From Saccharicrinis fermentans DSM 9555 = JCM 21142 (lineage in GTDB: Bacteria > Bacteroidota > Bacteroidia > Bacteroidales > Marinilabiliaceae): a DNA stretch of 64,000 nt. How positions within the stretch are numbered: the first letter of the stretch is position 1; every line of letters starts with the position of its first letter. The position numbers and the translations under genes are program-made. The notes under the pieces are model-generated. The model searched no databases. It was not told the origin of the DNA and saw only the letters and a program-made list of their open reading frames with translations. The stretch lies in NCBI RefSeq assembly GCF_000517085.1, contig NZ_KI912107.1, positions 1,116,398 to 1,180,397 on the forward strand, written 5' to 3'. Below, one piece after another: positions 11,823-61,367 of the stretch.

Positions 11823-12893
11823 ATGCAAATTCATATATCAAAATTCAGATCATGGTTACCGCATATACTTGGTATTTTGTTTGTCATGACCATACCTTTG
11901 TTTGTGTTTGACCAATCAGATAATCGCCTTGTCTTTTGGAAATATGGCTATTATTATCAAATGATATTTATGATGGCGGCCTTTTATACCAATTACCTCT
12001 TAATAGTGCCCCGACTATACTTTTTAAAGAGAAAGTGGTATTTTTTTGTCACTATTTTTTTATTTGCCATAGCTACTATCATATTGGTGCAAATGGGGTA
12101 TGAAATACTGGATTTTGAGGGGGTGAGAGAGCGTCTGGCTTTAAAAAGAATGGAGTCTGCTCGAAAAGTGGCCAATTTCACTATACATCCCAAGCTTATT
12201 GATAATTTTTATTTACTTGTTTTGGTGCTTAGCGCAAGTACCGGAATAGCCATTATTAAACAGCTTAATCATAGCGAAAAAATGCAGCATGAAAAAGAAA
12301 AGGCACATAAAGATACGGAACTGGCATTCTTGAAGAATCAAATAAGTCCCCATTTTTTTTTCAATGCTTTGAATAATATTTATGCGCTTATAGCTATTGA
12401 TGGAGATAAAGCTCAGCGTTCTGTTGAAAAACTGTCTGCTTTAATGCGTTATCTAATATATGAATCGGATATTAAAACCATTGCATTGAGTAAAGAGTTT
12501 GCGTTTATTCAAAACTATATCGATCTGATGAGGCAACGTTTAAGCTCAAAAGTACAACTGGATGTGAATATTACGCATAAGCATCCGCAGACGCATATTC
12601 CTCCCTTATTGTTTATTCCATTTATTGAAAATGCCTTTAAGCATGGTGTAAGTTATCGTGAGAAGTCTTTTATTGAAATAGGTTTAAAGGAAGAGAATAA
12701 ACAGATTATTTTTACTTGTAATAACAGTGTGCCTACGAAAAAGAATGTAGATGATAGTAAGAGTGGTGGACTGGGTATTGTTAATATAAAAAAACGTTTG
12801 CATTTGATTTATGGGGATAGGGCTGTTTTAAAAATGGATGAGGATGAGAATGTATTTAGCGTTTGTTTAATAGTTCCATTGGAAGCTTGTTAA
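11823..12893 (+). CDS. LytS-like sensor histidine kinase (His_kinase PF06580 family)
   Basis: 356 residues. Four hydrophobic segments in the first 150 residues, with no obvious periplasmic sensor domain, are followed by a coiled linker and the family H-box FLKNQISPHFFFNALNNIY. The ATPase part has FIENAFKHG (N-box) and SGGLGIVNIKKRL (G-box). Such kinases pair with LytTR regulators, and the cognate gene at 14277 is the next cellular gene, now separated by an IS110-family element. The 24-base gap to the permease suggests that the pump genes and this pair originally formed one operon. The signal is probably membrane- or substrate-related, but this is inferred from context only. Confidence 0.92.
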   Translation: MQIHISKFRSWLPHILGILFVMTIPLFVFDQSDNRLVFWKYGYYYQMIFMMAAFYTNYLLIVPRLYFLKRKWYFFVTIFLFAIATIILVQMGYEILDFEGVRERLALKRMESARKVANFTIHPKLIDNFYLLVLVLSASTGIAIIKQLNHSEKMQHEKEKAHKDTELAFLKNQISPHFFFNALNNIYALIAIDGDKAQRSVEKLSALMRYLIYESDIKTIALSKEFAFIQNYIDLMRQRLSSKVQLDVNITHKHPQTHIPPLLFIPFIENAFKHGVSYREKSFIEIGLKEENKQIIFTCNNSVPTKKNVDDSKSGGLGIVNIKKRLHLIYGDRAVLKMDEDENVFSVCLIVPLEAC

Positions 12894-13036
12894 GAAATTA
12901 TTTGAGAATATGACTGTTTTTACTCATGATAAAGTAGCATGAAAGCGCTGTTCTTGCACTGAAGGATGATGAATGTTGGCGAGTTCCATATGACAACTGA
13001 GAAACAAATTATAAACATATCGTTAGTTTGTGGTAC

Positions 13037-13223
13037 GTAAAATATTATTAGAAATGAATAAGAAATAATACCCTTATATTGGTTAAAAAGCTCCATCTGC
13101 TGCGTTAACTTTATTAAACAGATAGATTGAATCTAAGTTTCATATTAAGAACAGCAGATTATTGAGTAAAAGCCAGAGAGTATTTAGGGCAGAACCCACT
13201 ATCACGATGTTAGCCACTCAATA
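13037..13223 (+). ncRNA. Predicted IS110 bridge RNA (target and donor guide loops)
   Basis: The non-coding left end folds into three consecutive hairpins. (1) TATTATT 13043-13049 pairs with AATAATA 13064-13070. (2) ATCTGCTG 13095-13102 pairs with CAGCAGAT 13152-13159; it encloses a two-sided internal loop and an inner hairpin (AGAT 13124-13127 with ATCT 13131-13134). (3) TATTGAGT 13160-13167 pairs with ACTCAATA 13216-13223; it encloses another two-sided loop and an inner GGG/CCC stem (13187-13189, 13195-13197). A 5' hairpin followed by two guide loops just upstream of the transposase is the known IS110 (IS621) bridge RNA layout. A near -7 box (TAGTTTG, 13024-13030) would start RNA near 13037, giving about 187 nt. 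Exact ends are estimates. Confidence 0.75.
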
Positions 13224-13239
13224 CGGAGCATAAAACAAA

Positions 13240-14253
13240 ATGTTTATGCAAGTATATGGAATTGATTTATCAATGGAAAAGTTTGATGTAAACTTTATTG
13301 ACAAGAATGGAAAAGAAAAGAAGAAACAAGTGAAGAACAGACTAAGTGCCATATCAAAGTTCTTAGAGAACGTATCAGAAGATGCCGTATTGTGTGTTGA
13401 GCATACAGGTTCCTATGGAGACTTATTGGTTTATTTATGCAACCAGTTAGGAATAGATATAGCCTTGATACCGGGTTATACCATAAAGCATAGCCTAGGT
13501 ATGATAAAGGGAAAGTCTGATGATATAGATGCCGCTAGAATACGAGAATATGGAGAGCGATTCTTTGATAAGTTAAAATACAAGCAGTACGATTCAGAAG
13601 AGATAGTTGAATTGAAAAGTTTGTATACACTGCGTTCTCAATTAGTGAAGGCAAGAAAGGTTTTAAGAACAGGAGAGCACGGTCGTTCCAATGTGCCCAT
13701 ACAAAGCGTAAGTGCACATAAATATGCAGATAAAGCTATATTCAATTTAAACAAAGAGATAGAAGAAGTAGAAAGTGAAATAGAAGCTATAATAACGGCA
13801 AACAATGAACTGAACGACAATTATGAACTAGTTGTCAGCGTAAAAGGAATAGGGCCTGTTATAGCCACGGATTTGATTATTAAAACAGGGAACTTTCTTG
13901 TGATTGACACCGCTCGAAAGGCATCTTCATATGTGGGGATTTGCCCTTTCCCCAATGCGTCAGGAAAGATGGTCGGCAAAGCAAAAATAAGCCCGTTTGG
14001 AGATCGAAAACTAAAGGCTCTCCTTTATATGGGTGCTAAGTCTGCTGTCAAGCACAATAAAGAATATAGGCTGTATTACGAAAAGAAAAAGTTAGAGGGC
14101 AAACCTCATTATTTAATTATGAATAATGTGTCAAATAAAATGTTGAGAACAATTTATAGCGTTGTAAAAAATAAAACGCCTTACAGTCAAGATTACATAT
14201 GTCTTGACCCGAGAGAGAAAAATATTAATAGCTCCACTGAAATAGTGGCTTAA
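13240..14253 (+). CDS. IS110-family transposase (bridge-RNA-guided recombinase)
   Basis: 337 residues. The N-terminal RuvC-like DEDD domain shows YGIDLSMEKFDV (D9), CVEHTGSYG (E54) and KSDDIDAARIREYG (D94/D95, D97). The C-terminal Tnp_20 domain shows VVSVKGIGPVIATDLI, ASSYVGICPFPNASG and KISPFGDRKLKALLYMGAKS, with Ser251 in the position of the catalytic serine. All key residues are intact, so the element may be active. Starts at ATG 13240; ATG 13246 is an alternative. IS110 transposases excise as circles and integrate at sites set by an RNA encoded in the element's own non-coding end, which here lies immediately upstream. Confidence 0.96.
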   Translation: MFMQVYGIDLSMEKFDVNFIDKNGKEKKKQVKNRLSAISKFLENVSEDAVLCVEHTGSYGDLLVYLCNQLGIDIALIPGYTIKHSLGMIKGKSDDIDAARIREYGERFFDKLKYKQYDSEEIVELKSLYTLRSQLVKARKVLRTGEHGRSNVPIQSVSAHKYADKAIFNLNKEIEEVESEIEAIITANNELNDNYELVVSVKGIGPVIATDLIIKTGNFLVIDTARKASSYVGICPFPNASGKMVGKAKISPFGDRKLKALLYMGAKSAVKHNKEYRLYYEKKKLEGKPHYLIMNNVSNKMLRTIYSVVKNKTPYSQDYICLDPREKNINSSTEIVA

Positions 14254-14276
14254 AAATTTGTAATTAATTAGAGTAT

Positions 14277-15008
14277 ATGAAAAAAATTAGCTGTATTGCC
14301 ATCGATGATGAGCCGTTGGCCCTGGGGTTGATTGTGTCGCATATTAATAGAACACCTTTTTTAGAACTTAAAGGCCAGTTTGATAACCCTATAGATGCTA
14401 TGGAATATTTGCAGAGCAATCCGGTTCAGTTAATCTATTTGGATATTCAGATGCCAGATTTTACAGGTGTTGATTTTGCACGTACTTTGGATGAAAATTG
14501 TAAGGTGATATTTACCACCGCATATGAAAAATATGCGGTAGAGGGCTTTCGGCTTCACGCATTAGGGTATCTATTGAAACCGGTGAGTTATGAGGTTTTT
14601 TTGGATGCTACCCAGCATGCACAGAAGCATTTTAATTGGATAGATCTGGCCATGCAACAGCCCGACAAACAGCTAAGGTCCGATGAGGATTATTTATTTG
14701 TGAAAGCCAATGCGCAGTTAAAACGAATAAATTACGGAGATATTCTTTATCTGGAGGGATTGAAAGATTATGTAAAACTTTATACCGAAACGGAACAAAC
14801 ACCCATTGTGTTTTATGCAACAATGAAATCGGTGGAACAACGCTTGCCTTCTGATCGCTTTATGCGTGTTCATCGCTCTTTTATTGTGAATCTTGAAAAA
14901 ATTACCACCATTGAACGTTATCGAATTATCTTTGGTAAAGAACGCATTCCCATAAGCAAGCAATATAAAGAAGTCTTTGATGAATTTGTCAAAAAAAAGT
15001 TTCTTTAG
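14277..15008 (+). CDS. LytTR family response regulator
   Basis: 243 residues: an N-terminal receiver domain (acidic pair D10/D11, phospho-acceptor D56 in IYLDIQMPD, KPVSY near 102) and a C-terminal LytTR DNA-binding domain (about 140-240, with ILYLEGLKDYVKLYT and FMRVHRSFIVNLEKI). It is the expected partner of the LytS-like kinase at 11823-12893. Its ATG lies directly after the predicted AT core of the IS110-family element, so its original upstream region has been replaced by the element's AT-rich right end, while the coding sequence is untouched. Expression may now depend on read-through from the kinase or on transcription from the element. Confidence 0.94.
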   Translation: MKKISCIAIDDEPLALGLIVSHINRTPFLELKGQFDNPIDAMEYLQSNPVQLIYLDIQMPDFTGVDFARTLDENCKVIFTTAYEKYAVEGFRLHALGYLLKPVSYEVFLDATQHAQKHFNWIDLAMQQPDKQLRSDEDYLFVKANAQLKRINYGDILYLEGLKDYVKLYTETEQTPIVFYATMKSVEQRLPSDRFMRVHRSFIVNLEKITTIERYRIIFGKERIPISKQYKEVFDEFVKKKFL

Positions 15009-35791: not shown

Positions 35792-35887
35792 ACTTATGAA
35801 ACGAGCCATGGGTATTATTTCATATACACAGGGAAAGGATGATGATGGCGAAATCCATGTGAGCAATGACAAATTAAATTTAAACAT

Positions 35888-60986: not shown

Positions 60987-61367
60987 TTGGGTTGTATTAT
61001 GGTACGCGACCTATTTATTGTCTTATGAAACCGACATGGACAACCCAAATAATTGGACTTTCAGCGATGATTGAATTCAGCATGGCTTAGTATGGTTTCG
61101 CTAATTTTTAAACATATAAAACTCGCCGAAGTTAAGTATACTAACGTGTGATAAATATTTCGCATGGTCCGTTTCTTGTTTCATTATAGTTTGCTATTTC
61201 TGCAAACTTAAATACCGCTACTTTGGATTTTTTTTATTGCTTTTTTGATGCCTATCACGACCAATTATGAATAGATCAGGTTAGAATTAAAAGTGATCAA
61301 ATGTGTTGTCATTTTTTAGAATATTTATTACTTTAACACGCAGGGAACAATCTAAACAAAACAAGCG
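60987..61367. other. Long intergenic region with an inverted repeat and direct repeats
   Basis: TTGGGTTGT (60987-60995) and ACAACCCAA (61040-61048) form a 9-bp inverted repeat with a 44-base loop. AATAATTGG occurs directly at 60982-60990 and 61047-61055, overlapping the arms. Further right, AGTTTGC/GCAAACT (61188-61194, 61202-61208) is a smaller hairpin. No gene, RNA or full promoter match is seen. The first structure could be a long-loop terminator or a remnant of a tiny element. Confidence 0.4.

What the first reader, a model, noticed from the sequence alone, without database searches (positions are those of the whole stretch)
13019..14282. IS110-family element with a complete, self-consistent bridge RNA and four matching guides around an AT core
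The non-coding left end folds into a 5' hairpin (13043-13070) and two abutting hairpins with two-sided internal loops (13095-13159 and 13160-13223), the layout of an IS110 bridge RNA. Reading the loops as guides gives four matches that share one AT core. Left target guide TAAACAGAT (13115-13123) equals the left flank TAAACATAT (13012-13020) in 8 of 9 bases. Right target guide TTTCATAT (13138-13145) is the exact complement of ATATGAAA at the right flank (14275-14282). Left donor guide AGAGTAT (13177-13183) equals the right end of the element (14270-14276). Right donor guide ACGAT (13204-13208) is the complement of ATCGT at the left end (13019-13023). Each match is short, but all four fall in the expected loop and orientation and agree on the same core. 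An AT core would differ from the CT core of IS621.
Basis: partly seen in the sequence, partly recalled or inferred. Interest (0 to 1): 0.9.

Follow-up and report, generated by a model that had tools for sequence, protein, structure and literature searches.

The report
RNA-guided jumping gene targeting start codons
This is a real IS110-type jumping gene, probably mobile until recently, whose own guide RNA appears to steer it to the first codon of bacterial genes, where it splits the ATG but rebuilds it, so the neighbouring gene can still be read.

Summary
The finding holds up, with one correction. 13019-14276 is an IS110-group insertion sequence with a complete bridge RNA in its left end. The genome holds six full copies, four identical and two with one base change each. 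Across homologues the left target guide follows the flanking DNA: 8.4 of 10 bases in own pairs against 4.7 in swapped pairs, 0 of 20,000 shuffles as good. The two hairpins keep pairing through compensatory changes. The recombinase has D9, E54, D94, D97 and S241.

Correction: the right core is the AT at 14277-14278, not 14275-14276, so the empty site reads TAAACAT-ATGAAA.

New here: that core is the AT of a start codon. All six copies split the ATG of a long reading frame and restore it on the right. Joined in a circle, the ends make TTTG-N20-TTAGTTTG, one base off a Bacteroidota promoter. One source of target sites is a ~90-bp repeat standing just before start codons, about 400 copies by extrapolation. 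RNA, circle and activity are inferred, not measured.

The parts
12938..13018 (+). Copy of the ~90-bp start-codon repeat (5' part diverged or missing); its 3' end is the left target flank
   Evidence: nhmmer with a profile of the genome's own copies, E = 1.9e-12, matched 12938-13017
13011..13018 (+). Left target LT, ATAAACAT
   Evidence: matches the left target guide in 6 of 8 bases, 8 of 10 with the core
13019..13020 (+). Left copy of the AT core
   Evidence: common to all six copies in the genome
13021..13239 (+). Left end (219 nt) holding the right donor RD (CGTTAG, 13021-13026) and the bridge RNA
13023..13030 (+). TTAGTTTG, candidate -7 box of the promoter formed when the ends are joined
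   Evidence: present in 13 of 17 joined ends; TTACTT variants in the other 4; consensus TAnnTTTG from PMC7366714
13037..13230 (+). Predicted bridge RNA (ends are inferred)
   Evidence: fold and covariation; transcript not measured
13043..13070 (+).
13090..13094 (+). Outer stem, 5' arm GCTCC (3' arm GGAGC at 13225-13229)
   Evidence: GCTCC/GGAGC in 17 and GTTCC/GGAAC in 5 of 22
13095..13159 (+). Target-binding loop hairpin
   Evidence: covariation in stem, 4 of 8 pairs with changes on both sides
13114..13123 (+). Left target guide TTAAACAG with core AT
   Evidence: follows the flank across homologues
13135..13143 (+). Right target guide AAGTTTC with core AT (reads target AT-GAAACTT)
13144..13145 (+). 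Target-loop handshake guide AT, complementary to the last two bases of LD
   Evidence: AT in 22 of 22; role by analogy with IS621
13162..13221 (+). Donor-binding loop hairpin
   Evidence: covariation, 3 of 7 stem pairs with changes on both sides
13177..13183 (+). Left donor guide AGAGTAT
   Evidence: equals LD 14270-14276
13199..13208 (+). Right donor guide CTA(TC)ACG-AT, read with a 2-base bulge against AT-CGT-TAG
   Evidence: sequence; the two bulge bases are absent in 6 of 22 rows
13209..13210 (+). Donor-loop handshake guide GT
   Evidence: GT in 13 and TT in 9 of 22; role by analogy with IS621
13240..14253 (+). IS110 recombinase, 337 aa
   Evidence: PF01548 and PF02371; relatives ISCro4 and IS621 in the PDB; D9, E54, D94, D97, S241
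14254..14276 (+). Right end (23 nt)
   Evidence: same in all six copies
14257..14260 (+). TTTG, candidate -33 box, 20 nt before TTAGTTTG in the circle
   Evidence: TTG at 19-20 nt in 17 of 17 joined ends
14270..14276 (+). Left donor LD, AGAGTAT
14277..14278 (+). Right copy of the AT core = first two bases of the start codon
   Evidence: empty sites
14277..15008 (+). LytTR-type response regulator gene whose ATG is split and restored
   Evidence: PF00072 and PF04397
11823..12893 (+). Histidine kinase gene upstream of the insertion
   Evidence: PF06580

Best explanation
A recently mobile IS110-group element. Shown by sequence: its left end encodes a conserved two-loop RNA; the target loop is addressed to TTAAACAG-AT-GAAAC(TT) and the donor loop to AGAGTAT-AT-CGT(TAG); six copies sit at such sites. 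Inferred from the IS621 mechanism: the element leaves as a circle joined at AGAGTAT-AT-CGTTAG; the junction makes a promoter that transcribes the bridge RNA and probably the recombinase gene; two RNA loops bring circle and target together and the recombinase exchanges strands next to the AT core. Because that target address is a Bacteroidota translation start (A/T-rich leader, then ATGAAA), insertion falls inside the ATG, and the core AT followed by the target's G rebuilds the start codon at the right junction, with the A/T-rich right end as the new leader. In this genus one source of such sites is the 3' end of a ~90-bp repeat standing before start codons.
For: Six full copies, 0-1 differences. 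Own left guide against own flank 8.44 of 10, swapped 4.72, 0 of 20,000; right guide 4.38 of 6 against 3.14, 0 of 20,000. Covariation in both hairpins. Catalytic residues and PDB relatives. All six copies open a reading frame of 243 aa or more at the restored ATG. Empty sites. Joined ends keep TTG-N19-20-TTA[GC]TT in 17 of 17.
Against: No RNA, circle or new insertion was measured. Left guides match poorly in L030, L032, L036 (6 of 10) and L029 (7 of 10). Only 17 of 32 right flanks open a frame of 60 aa or more; the 15 misses include all six of the GGAAACGGA-target class. The donor guide has TT where the donor core has AT. The single-sequence fold is not exceptional (z = -1.45). Donor matches and end motifs hardly vary, so they give no covariation.
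Confidence: 0.88

Rival explanations
1. The guide is addressed to the 3' end of the host's ~90-bp repeat, as IS621 is to REP, and start codons are hit only because the repeat ends there.
For: The repeat lies at the left flank of the window copy (E = 5.6e-14), of L010, L011 and L027 from other genomes, and weakly of L002 (E = 0.018). IS621 and other IS110-family elements insert in REP sequences (PMC1525189, abstract and passages).
Against: No repeat was detected at the left flank of L003-L006 at E <= 1 (L003 shares the last 19 bases of repeat copies by eye). In hosts of other orders ATGAAA-type flanks also occur, e.g. L030, L035, L049; the repeat was not searched for in those genomes.
Confidence: 0.35
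2. The four guide matches are chance and the element is placed by protein recognition alone.
For: Each match in the window alone is short, and most flanks are A/T-rich.
Against: Own guide-flank pairs beat every one of 20,000 swaps, including non-A/T addresses such as GAAACGGA and GCGGTGGT.
Confidence: 0.02
3. It is an IS1111-group or Piv-like member rather than IS110 group.
For: Same recombinase superfamily (Pfam matches).
Against: Long left end (219 nt) holding the RNA and a 23-nt right end, the IS110-group layout described in PMC11208160 section 12; closest solved relatives are ISCro4 and IS621; dispersed copies.
Confidence: 0.04
4. A dead relic kept by chance.
For: No activity was measured; only partial matches or right-end sites without a full recombinase gene were found in G007.
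Against: Six copies with at most one change each and an intact frame.
Confidence: 0.06

Closest known systems
IS621 (E. coli, IS110 group; PMC11208160 sections 5, 7, 12 and passages; PMC11208158 passages)
   Same: DEDD plus Ser241 recombinase; bridge RNA in the left end with target and donor loops; core inside all guides; donor guide with a discontiguous right pairing; promoter across the joined ends; the target-loop handshake guide AT and, in this element, the donor-loop GT are the same letters as the wild-type IS621 handshake guides quoted.
   Different: AT instead of CT core; address is a start codon rather than REP; Bacteroidota-type promoter boxes instead of sigma-70; recombinase similarity is distant (E = 6.9e-14).
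ISCro4 (PDB 9t56)
   Same: Nearest solved recombinase by sequence (E = 1.8e-14).
   Different: Its RNA and target were not examined here.
ISEc21 (IS110 type, seekRNA; PMC11187229, passages)
   Same: Non-coding region upstream of the recombinase, circle with promoter at the junction, insertion at the usual site without duplication of target bases.
   Different: Its target is a conserved stretch of an IS3-family transposase gene, not start codons.
ISPa11, ISPpu9, ISPpu10 (IS110 family at REP sequences; PMC1525189, abstract and passages)
   Same: Insertion at a host short repeat.
   Different: REP sequences, not a repeat ending at start codons.
IS900 (IS110 family, mycobacteria)
   Same: Recalled only: said to insert beside start codons. 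Not confirmed in the passages of PMC8141618 that I saw nor in two search listings.
   Different: Actinobacterial; its guides were not examined here.

Membership tests
IS110 family (IS110 group) | DEDD RuvC-like N-terminal domain and C-terminal domain with conserved serine | tested here: met
   PF01548 and PF02371 above cut-off; D9, E54, D94, D97, S241
IS110 family (IS110 group) | Long left end, short right end, RNA in the left end | tested here: met
   219 nt against 23 nt; fold in the left end; definition
IS110 family (IS110 group) | Insertion around a short core, no other target duplication | tested here: met
   six copies and empty sites differ only by the element and one AT
IS110 family (IS110 group) | Circular form with promoter at the joined ends | not testable with these tools
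   promoter-like boxes are conserved in 17 of 17 joined ends, but circle and transcription need an experiment
Bridge RNA (IS621 type) | Two internal loops whose guides match target and donor and share the core | tested here: met
   the left donor guide has TT at the core positions
Bridge RNA (IS621 type) | RNA is expressed and bound by the recombinase | not testable with these tools
   needs RNA sequencing and binding assays
Bridge RNA (IS621 type) | 5' stem-loop before the target loop | tested here: inconclusive
   different or no hairpin in individual homologues
IS1111 group | Long right end holding the RNA | tested here: not met
   right end is 23 nt
IS1111 group | 7-17 bp subterminal inverted repeats | not tested
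   no search of the ends for inverted repeats was run

The most novel reading that the evidence does not exclude
A bridge RNA evolved to read a functional signal, the translation start, so that insertion is gene-preserving: the core lies inside the ATG, the right end replaces the leader, and the address is present at many genes. A bolder, weakly supported extension: the ~90-bp cassettes that begin AT-GAAAC, end just before AT-G and stack head to tail at start codons could themselves have been inserted by bridge-type recombination around the same AT core.
Probability: 0.45. Interest if true: 0.7.

Novelty: new member of a known kind. Interest (0 to 1): 0.5.

Why it matters
Bridge RNAs are known to be programmable; this clade shows natural reprogramming, with guides that follow their sites across hosts, and one solution that aims at start codons and spares the gene. 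It is a compact candidate bridge recombinase from a phylum with its own promoter and leader rules. It also exposes an abundant start-codon repeat for which Rfam gave no family in the five loci scanned.

Tried and rejected
Rfam on 12800-14500: three matches, all below their gathering scores. Rfam on five repeat-bearing loci: only a tRNA. Direct repeats in the window: one unrelated two-copy family. Excision scars: I considered that AGAGTAT-ATG sites without an element are scars; G001, G004, G005 and G006, which lack a close relative of the recombinase, also have such sites (1, 1, 4 and 4), so this was dropped as unproven. Repeat moved by a REP-type tyrosine transposase: four Y1_Tnp matches in the genome, two with stop codons inside, and a repeat found only in one of the four loci; left open. 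In one search my script cut the left guide of L031 wrongly (4 of 10); corrected (10 of 10). Reports of bridge RNAs aimed at start codons: the listings showed none by title or abstract; supplementary files of the bridge RNA papers could not be read, so it may be tabulated there. Not done: structure prediction, a recombinase tree, inverted-repeat search of the ends.

Full report
What was checked. The window lies in a 5.98-Mb genome (G000, contig C3). The 337-aa frame 13240-14253 matches both IS110 domains. Its only PDB relatives at E <= 0.001 are ISCro4 (1.8e-14) and IS621 (6.9e-14). D9, E54, D94, D97 and S241 fall at the DEDD and Ser-Gly motifs of the alignment; IS621 uses D11, E60, D102, D105 and S241 (PMC11208158, passage).

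Boundaries. Six full copies were found. Over 13019-14276 the window copy, L002, L003 and L005 are identical; L004 and L006 carry one change each. All six begin AT-CGTTAG and end AGAGTAT, followed by ATGAAA. Left flanks end AAACAT (3), AATCAT (1) and AACAG (2).

Where the core is. The left flank of the window copy (gagaaacaaattataaacat) is the end of a repeat; an empty copy reads gagaaacaaattataaacat|ATGAAA (L086). In 864 kb of this genome TAAACA[TG]ATGAAA occurs 14 times and TAAACA[TG]ATATGAAA never; the shorter AACATATGAAA occurs 12 times and AACATATATGAAA once. An orthologous empty site in a sister genome (L147, for the L005 insertion) keeps a single aligned ATG; a second (L157, for L004) lacks the element but is too diverged to place the ATG base for base. 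So the target is LT-AT-GAAA, the right core is 14277-14278 and LD is AGAGTAT. That AT is in 22 of 22 left ends; the donor-loop handshake pair is GT in 13 and TT in 9.

Guides. Homologues came from genome contigs (30 loci) and from genus and family searches. By my knowledge 29 of the 30 titles name Bacteroidota; the last, L042, is a MAG titled Algicola, a gammaproteobacterial genus in the taxonomy, and is otherwise like the Flagellimonas loci. Of 37 loci parsed, 27 had a readable target loop and a 12-nt left flank. I kept 18, dropping nine that repeat a guide (L002-L006, L045, L046, L048, L051). Own left guide against own flank averages 8.44 of 10; swapped pairs average 4.72 with a maximum of 6.67; 0 of 20,000 shuffles reach the observed value. 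On the right, 13 loci give 4.38 of 6 against 3.14, 0 of 20,000; without the GGAAACGGA class (12 loci) 4.33 against 3.26, 1 of 20,000. Weak left cases are L030, L032, L036 (6 of 10) and L029 (7 of 10). The left core is CT in L031 and GT in L055 and L056, otherwise AT among the loci parsed with a left end; IS621 cores also keep the T.

Donor guides. The left donor guide AGAGTAT equals LD, but is followed by TT where the donor core is AT. The right donor guide can be read as CTA-(TC)-ACG-AT against AT-CGT-TAG with a two-base bulge; PMC11208160 section 7 describes nine RNA bases pairing discontiguously with seven donor bases. In the six rows of the GGAAACGGA clade exactly these two bases are absent; in L027 (CGATC) one of the extra pairs is broken. 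These matches hardly vary, so they give no covariation, and the bulge reading is mine.

RNA fold. The alignment A1 has 22 left ends; loci without the 5' part and redundant copies were left out. RNAalifold gives 28 pairs, 9 with compensatory change. Counted on the same alignment, 98.2% of cells pair (shuffles 93.3%), 39 cells changed on both sides (shuffles 11.3), 0 of 500 shuffles as high; slid partners pair 27-51%. One measure goes the other way: further pair types 14 against 17.4 in shuffles. The window sequence alone folds at z = -1.45. The outer stem covaries (17 and 5 of 22). The 5' hairpin is not a conserved feature.

Promoter. Joined ends give TTTG (14257-14260)-N20-TTAGTTTG (13023-13030), one base off the Bacteroides consensus TTTG and TAnnTTTG quoted in PMC7366714 (passage), which also says that the -33 motif was not found in Flavobacterium johnsoniae. 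Of 22 loci tried, 17 had both ends; all 17 keep TTG at 19-20 nt, 13 keep the whole TTAGTTTG, and four have TTACTT followed by AG or TA. These bases may also be kept for recombination.

Start codons. At the right junction the six own copies open frames of 243, 386, 461, 402, 342 and at least 502 aa. Of 40 loci tried, 32 had a right end and at least 150 bases of flank, and 17 of the 32 open a frame of 60 aa or more (one, L028, runs into the contig end; one, L221, has only a right-end-like sequence). Eight were set aside: five with 2-7 bases of flank and three without a right end found. The 15 misses are L014, L020, L029, L031, L033, L036, L038, L039, L054 and the six of the GGAAACGGA class. N-termini of L053, L049 and L017 look like RfbB, XylA and CoaD to me; no search was run. 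In the window the element separates a histidine kinase gene (PF06580) from a LytTR response regulator gene (PF00072, PF04397). Bacteroidetes generally lack Shine-Dalgarno signals and use A/T-rich unstructured leaders (PMC3155529, abstract), so the A/T-rich right end may serve as a leader; that is inference.

The repeat. A profile of the genome's own copies gives 58 hits in 864 kb (the window plus 40 stretches taken at regular spacing). Of 54 with a complete 3' end, 47 have ATG within 4 nt of the predicted place (39 exactly there) and 35 open a frame of 50 aa or more. That extrapolates to about 400 copies. The repeat matched in 9 of 9 genomes of the genus, some only weakly, and in 13 of 149 genomes sampled from the order, the own genome included. 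It often stands in tandem and itself starts ATGAAACGAGCC. One copy plus flank folds better than shuffles (z = -3.1). TAAACAKATGAAA occurs 91 times in the genome against 0 for the reversed control; of the first 30 of these sites, 20 open frames of 50 aa or more. With a base rate near two thirds, six of six own insertions at genes does not by itself show a preference beyond the sequence address.

Verdict. The element meets the tested features of the IS110 group; what is new is its address. Expression, circle and recombination remain to be shown.

Noticed in passing
window 12938-13017, 35796-35886, 61110-61175; L178 11385-11473; genome-wide: A ~90-bp repeat (ATGAAACGAGCCATG...GGCGAGTTCCATATGACCATTGAAAAATAAATTTAAACAT) stands directly before start codons, often in tandem; 58 hits in 864 kb, about 400 copies by extrapolation, also in 9 of 9 genomes of the genus.
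   Followed up: partly
L104, L087, L097, L099 (at the centre of each locus): A second short module beginning ATGAAACTGGCATGGCCAG... follows TAAACAKATG sites in the same way, so different modules seem to stack at start codons.
   Followed up: no
L058, L060, L066, L219, L225: Repeat copies whose 3' end is TTAGAGTAT|ATGAA, the same as the element's right end; also in genomes without a close relative of the recombinase.
   Followed up: partly
L261, L262, L260, L263: Fragments of Y1_Tnp (REP-associated-type tyrosine transposase) in the same genome; L262 has a copy of the repeat nearby.
   Followed up: partly
L040-L048, L051: Sister clade in Flagellimonas, Muricauda, Maribellus and others with the guide GAAACGGA-AT and flanks that continue AT-AAA; its right donor guide lacks the two-base bulge.
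   Followed up: partly
L030 around 2750-2790 and after 4000: The Olivibacter copy has the same stretch GAAAAAACTGATAT on both sides and a poorly matching left guide, possibly a different event or an assembly effect.
   Followed up: no
L223: Sister genome G002 holds a remnant: the left target TATAATGAG, then a piece of the recombinase 3' end and the right end, before an ATG of a frame of at least 501 aa.
   Followed up: no
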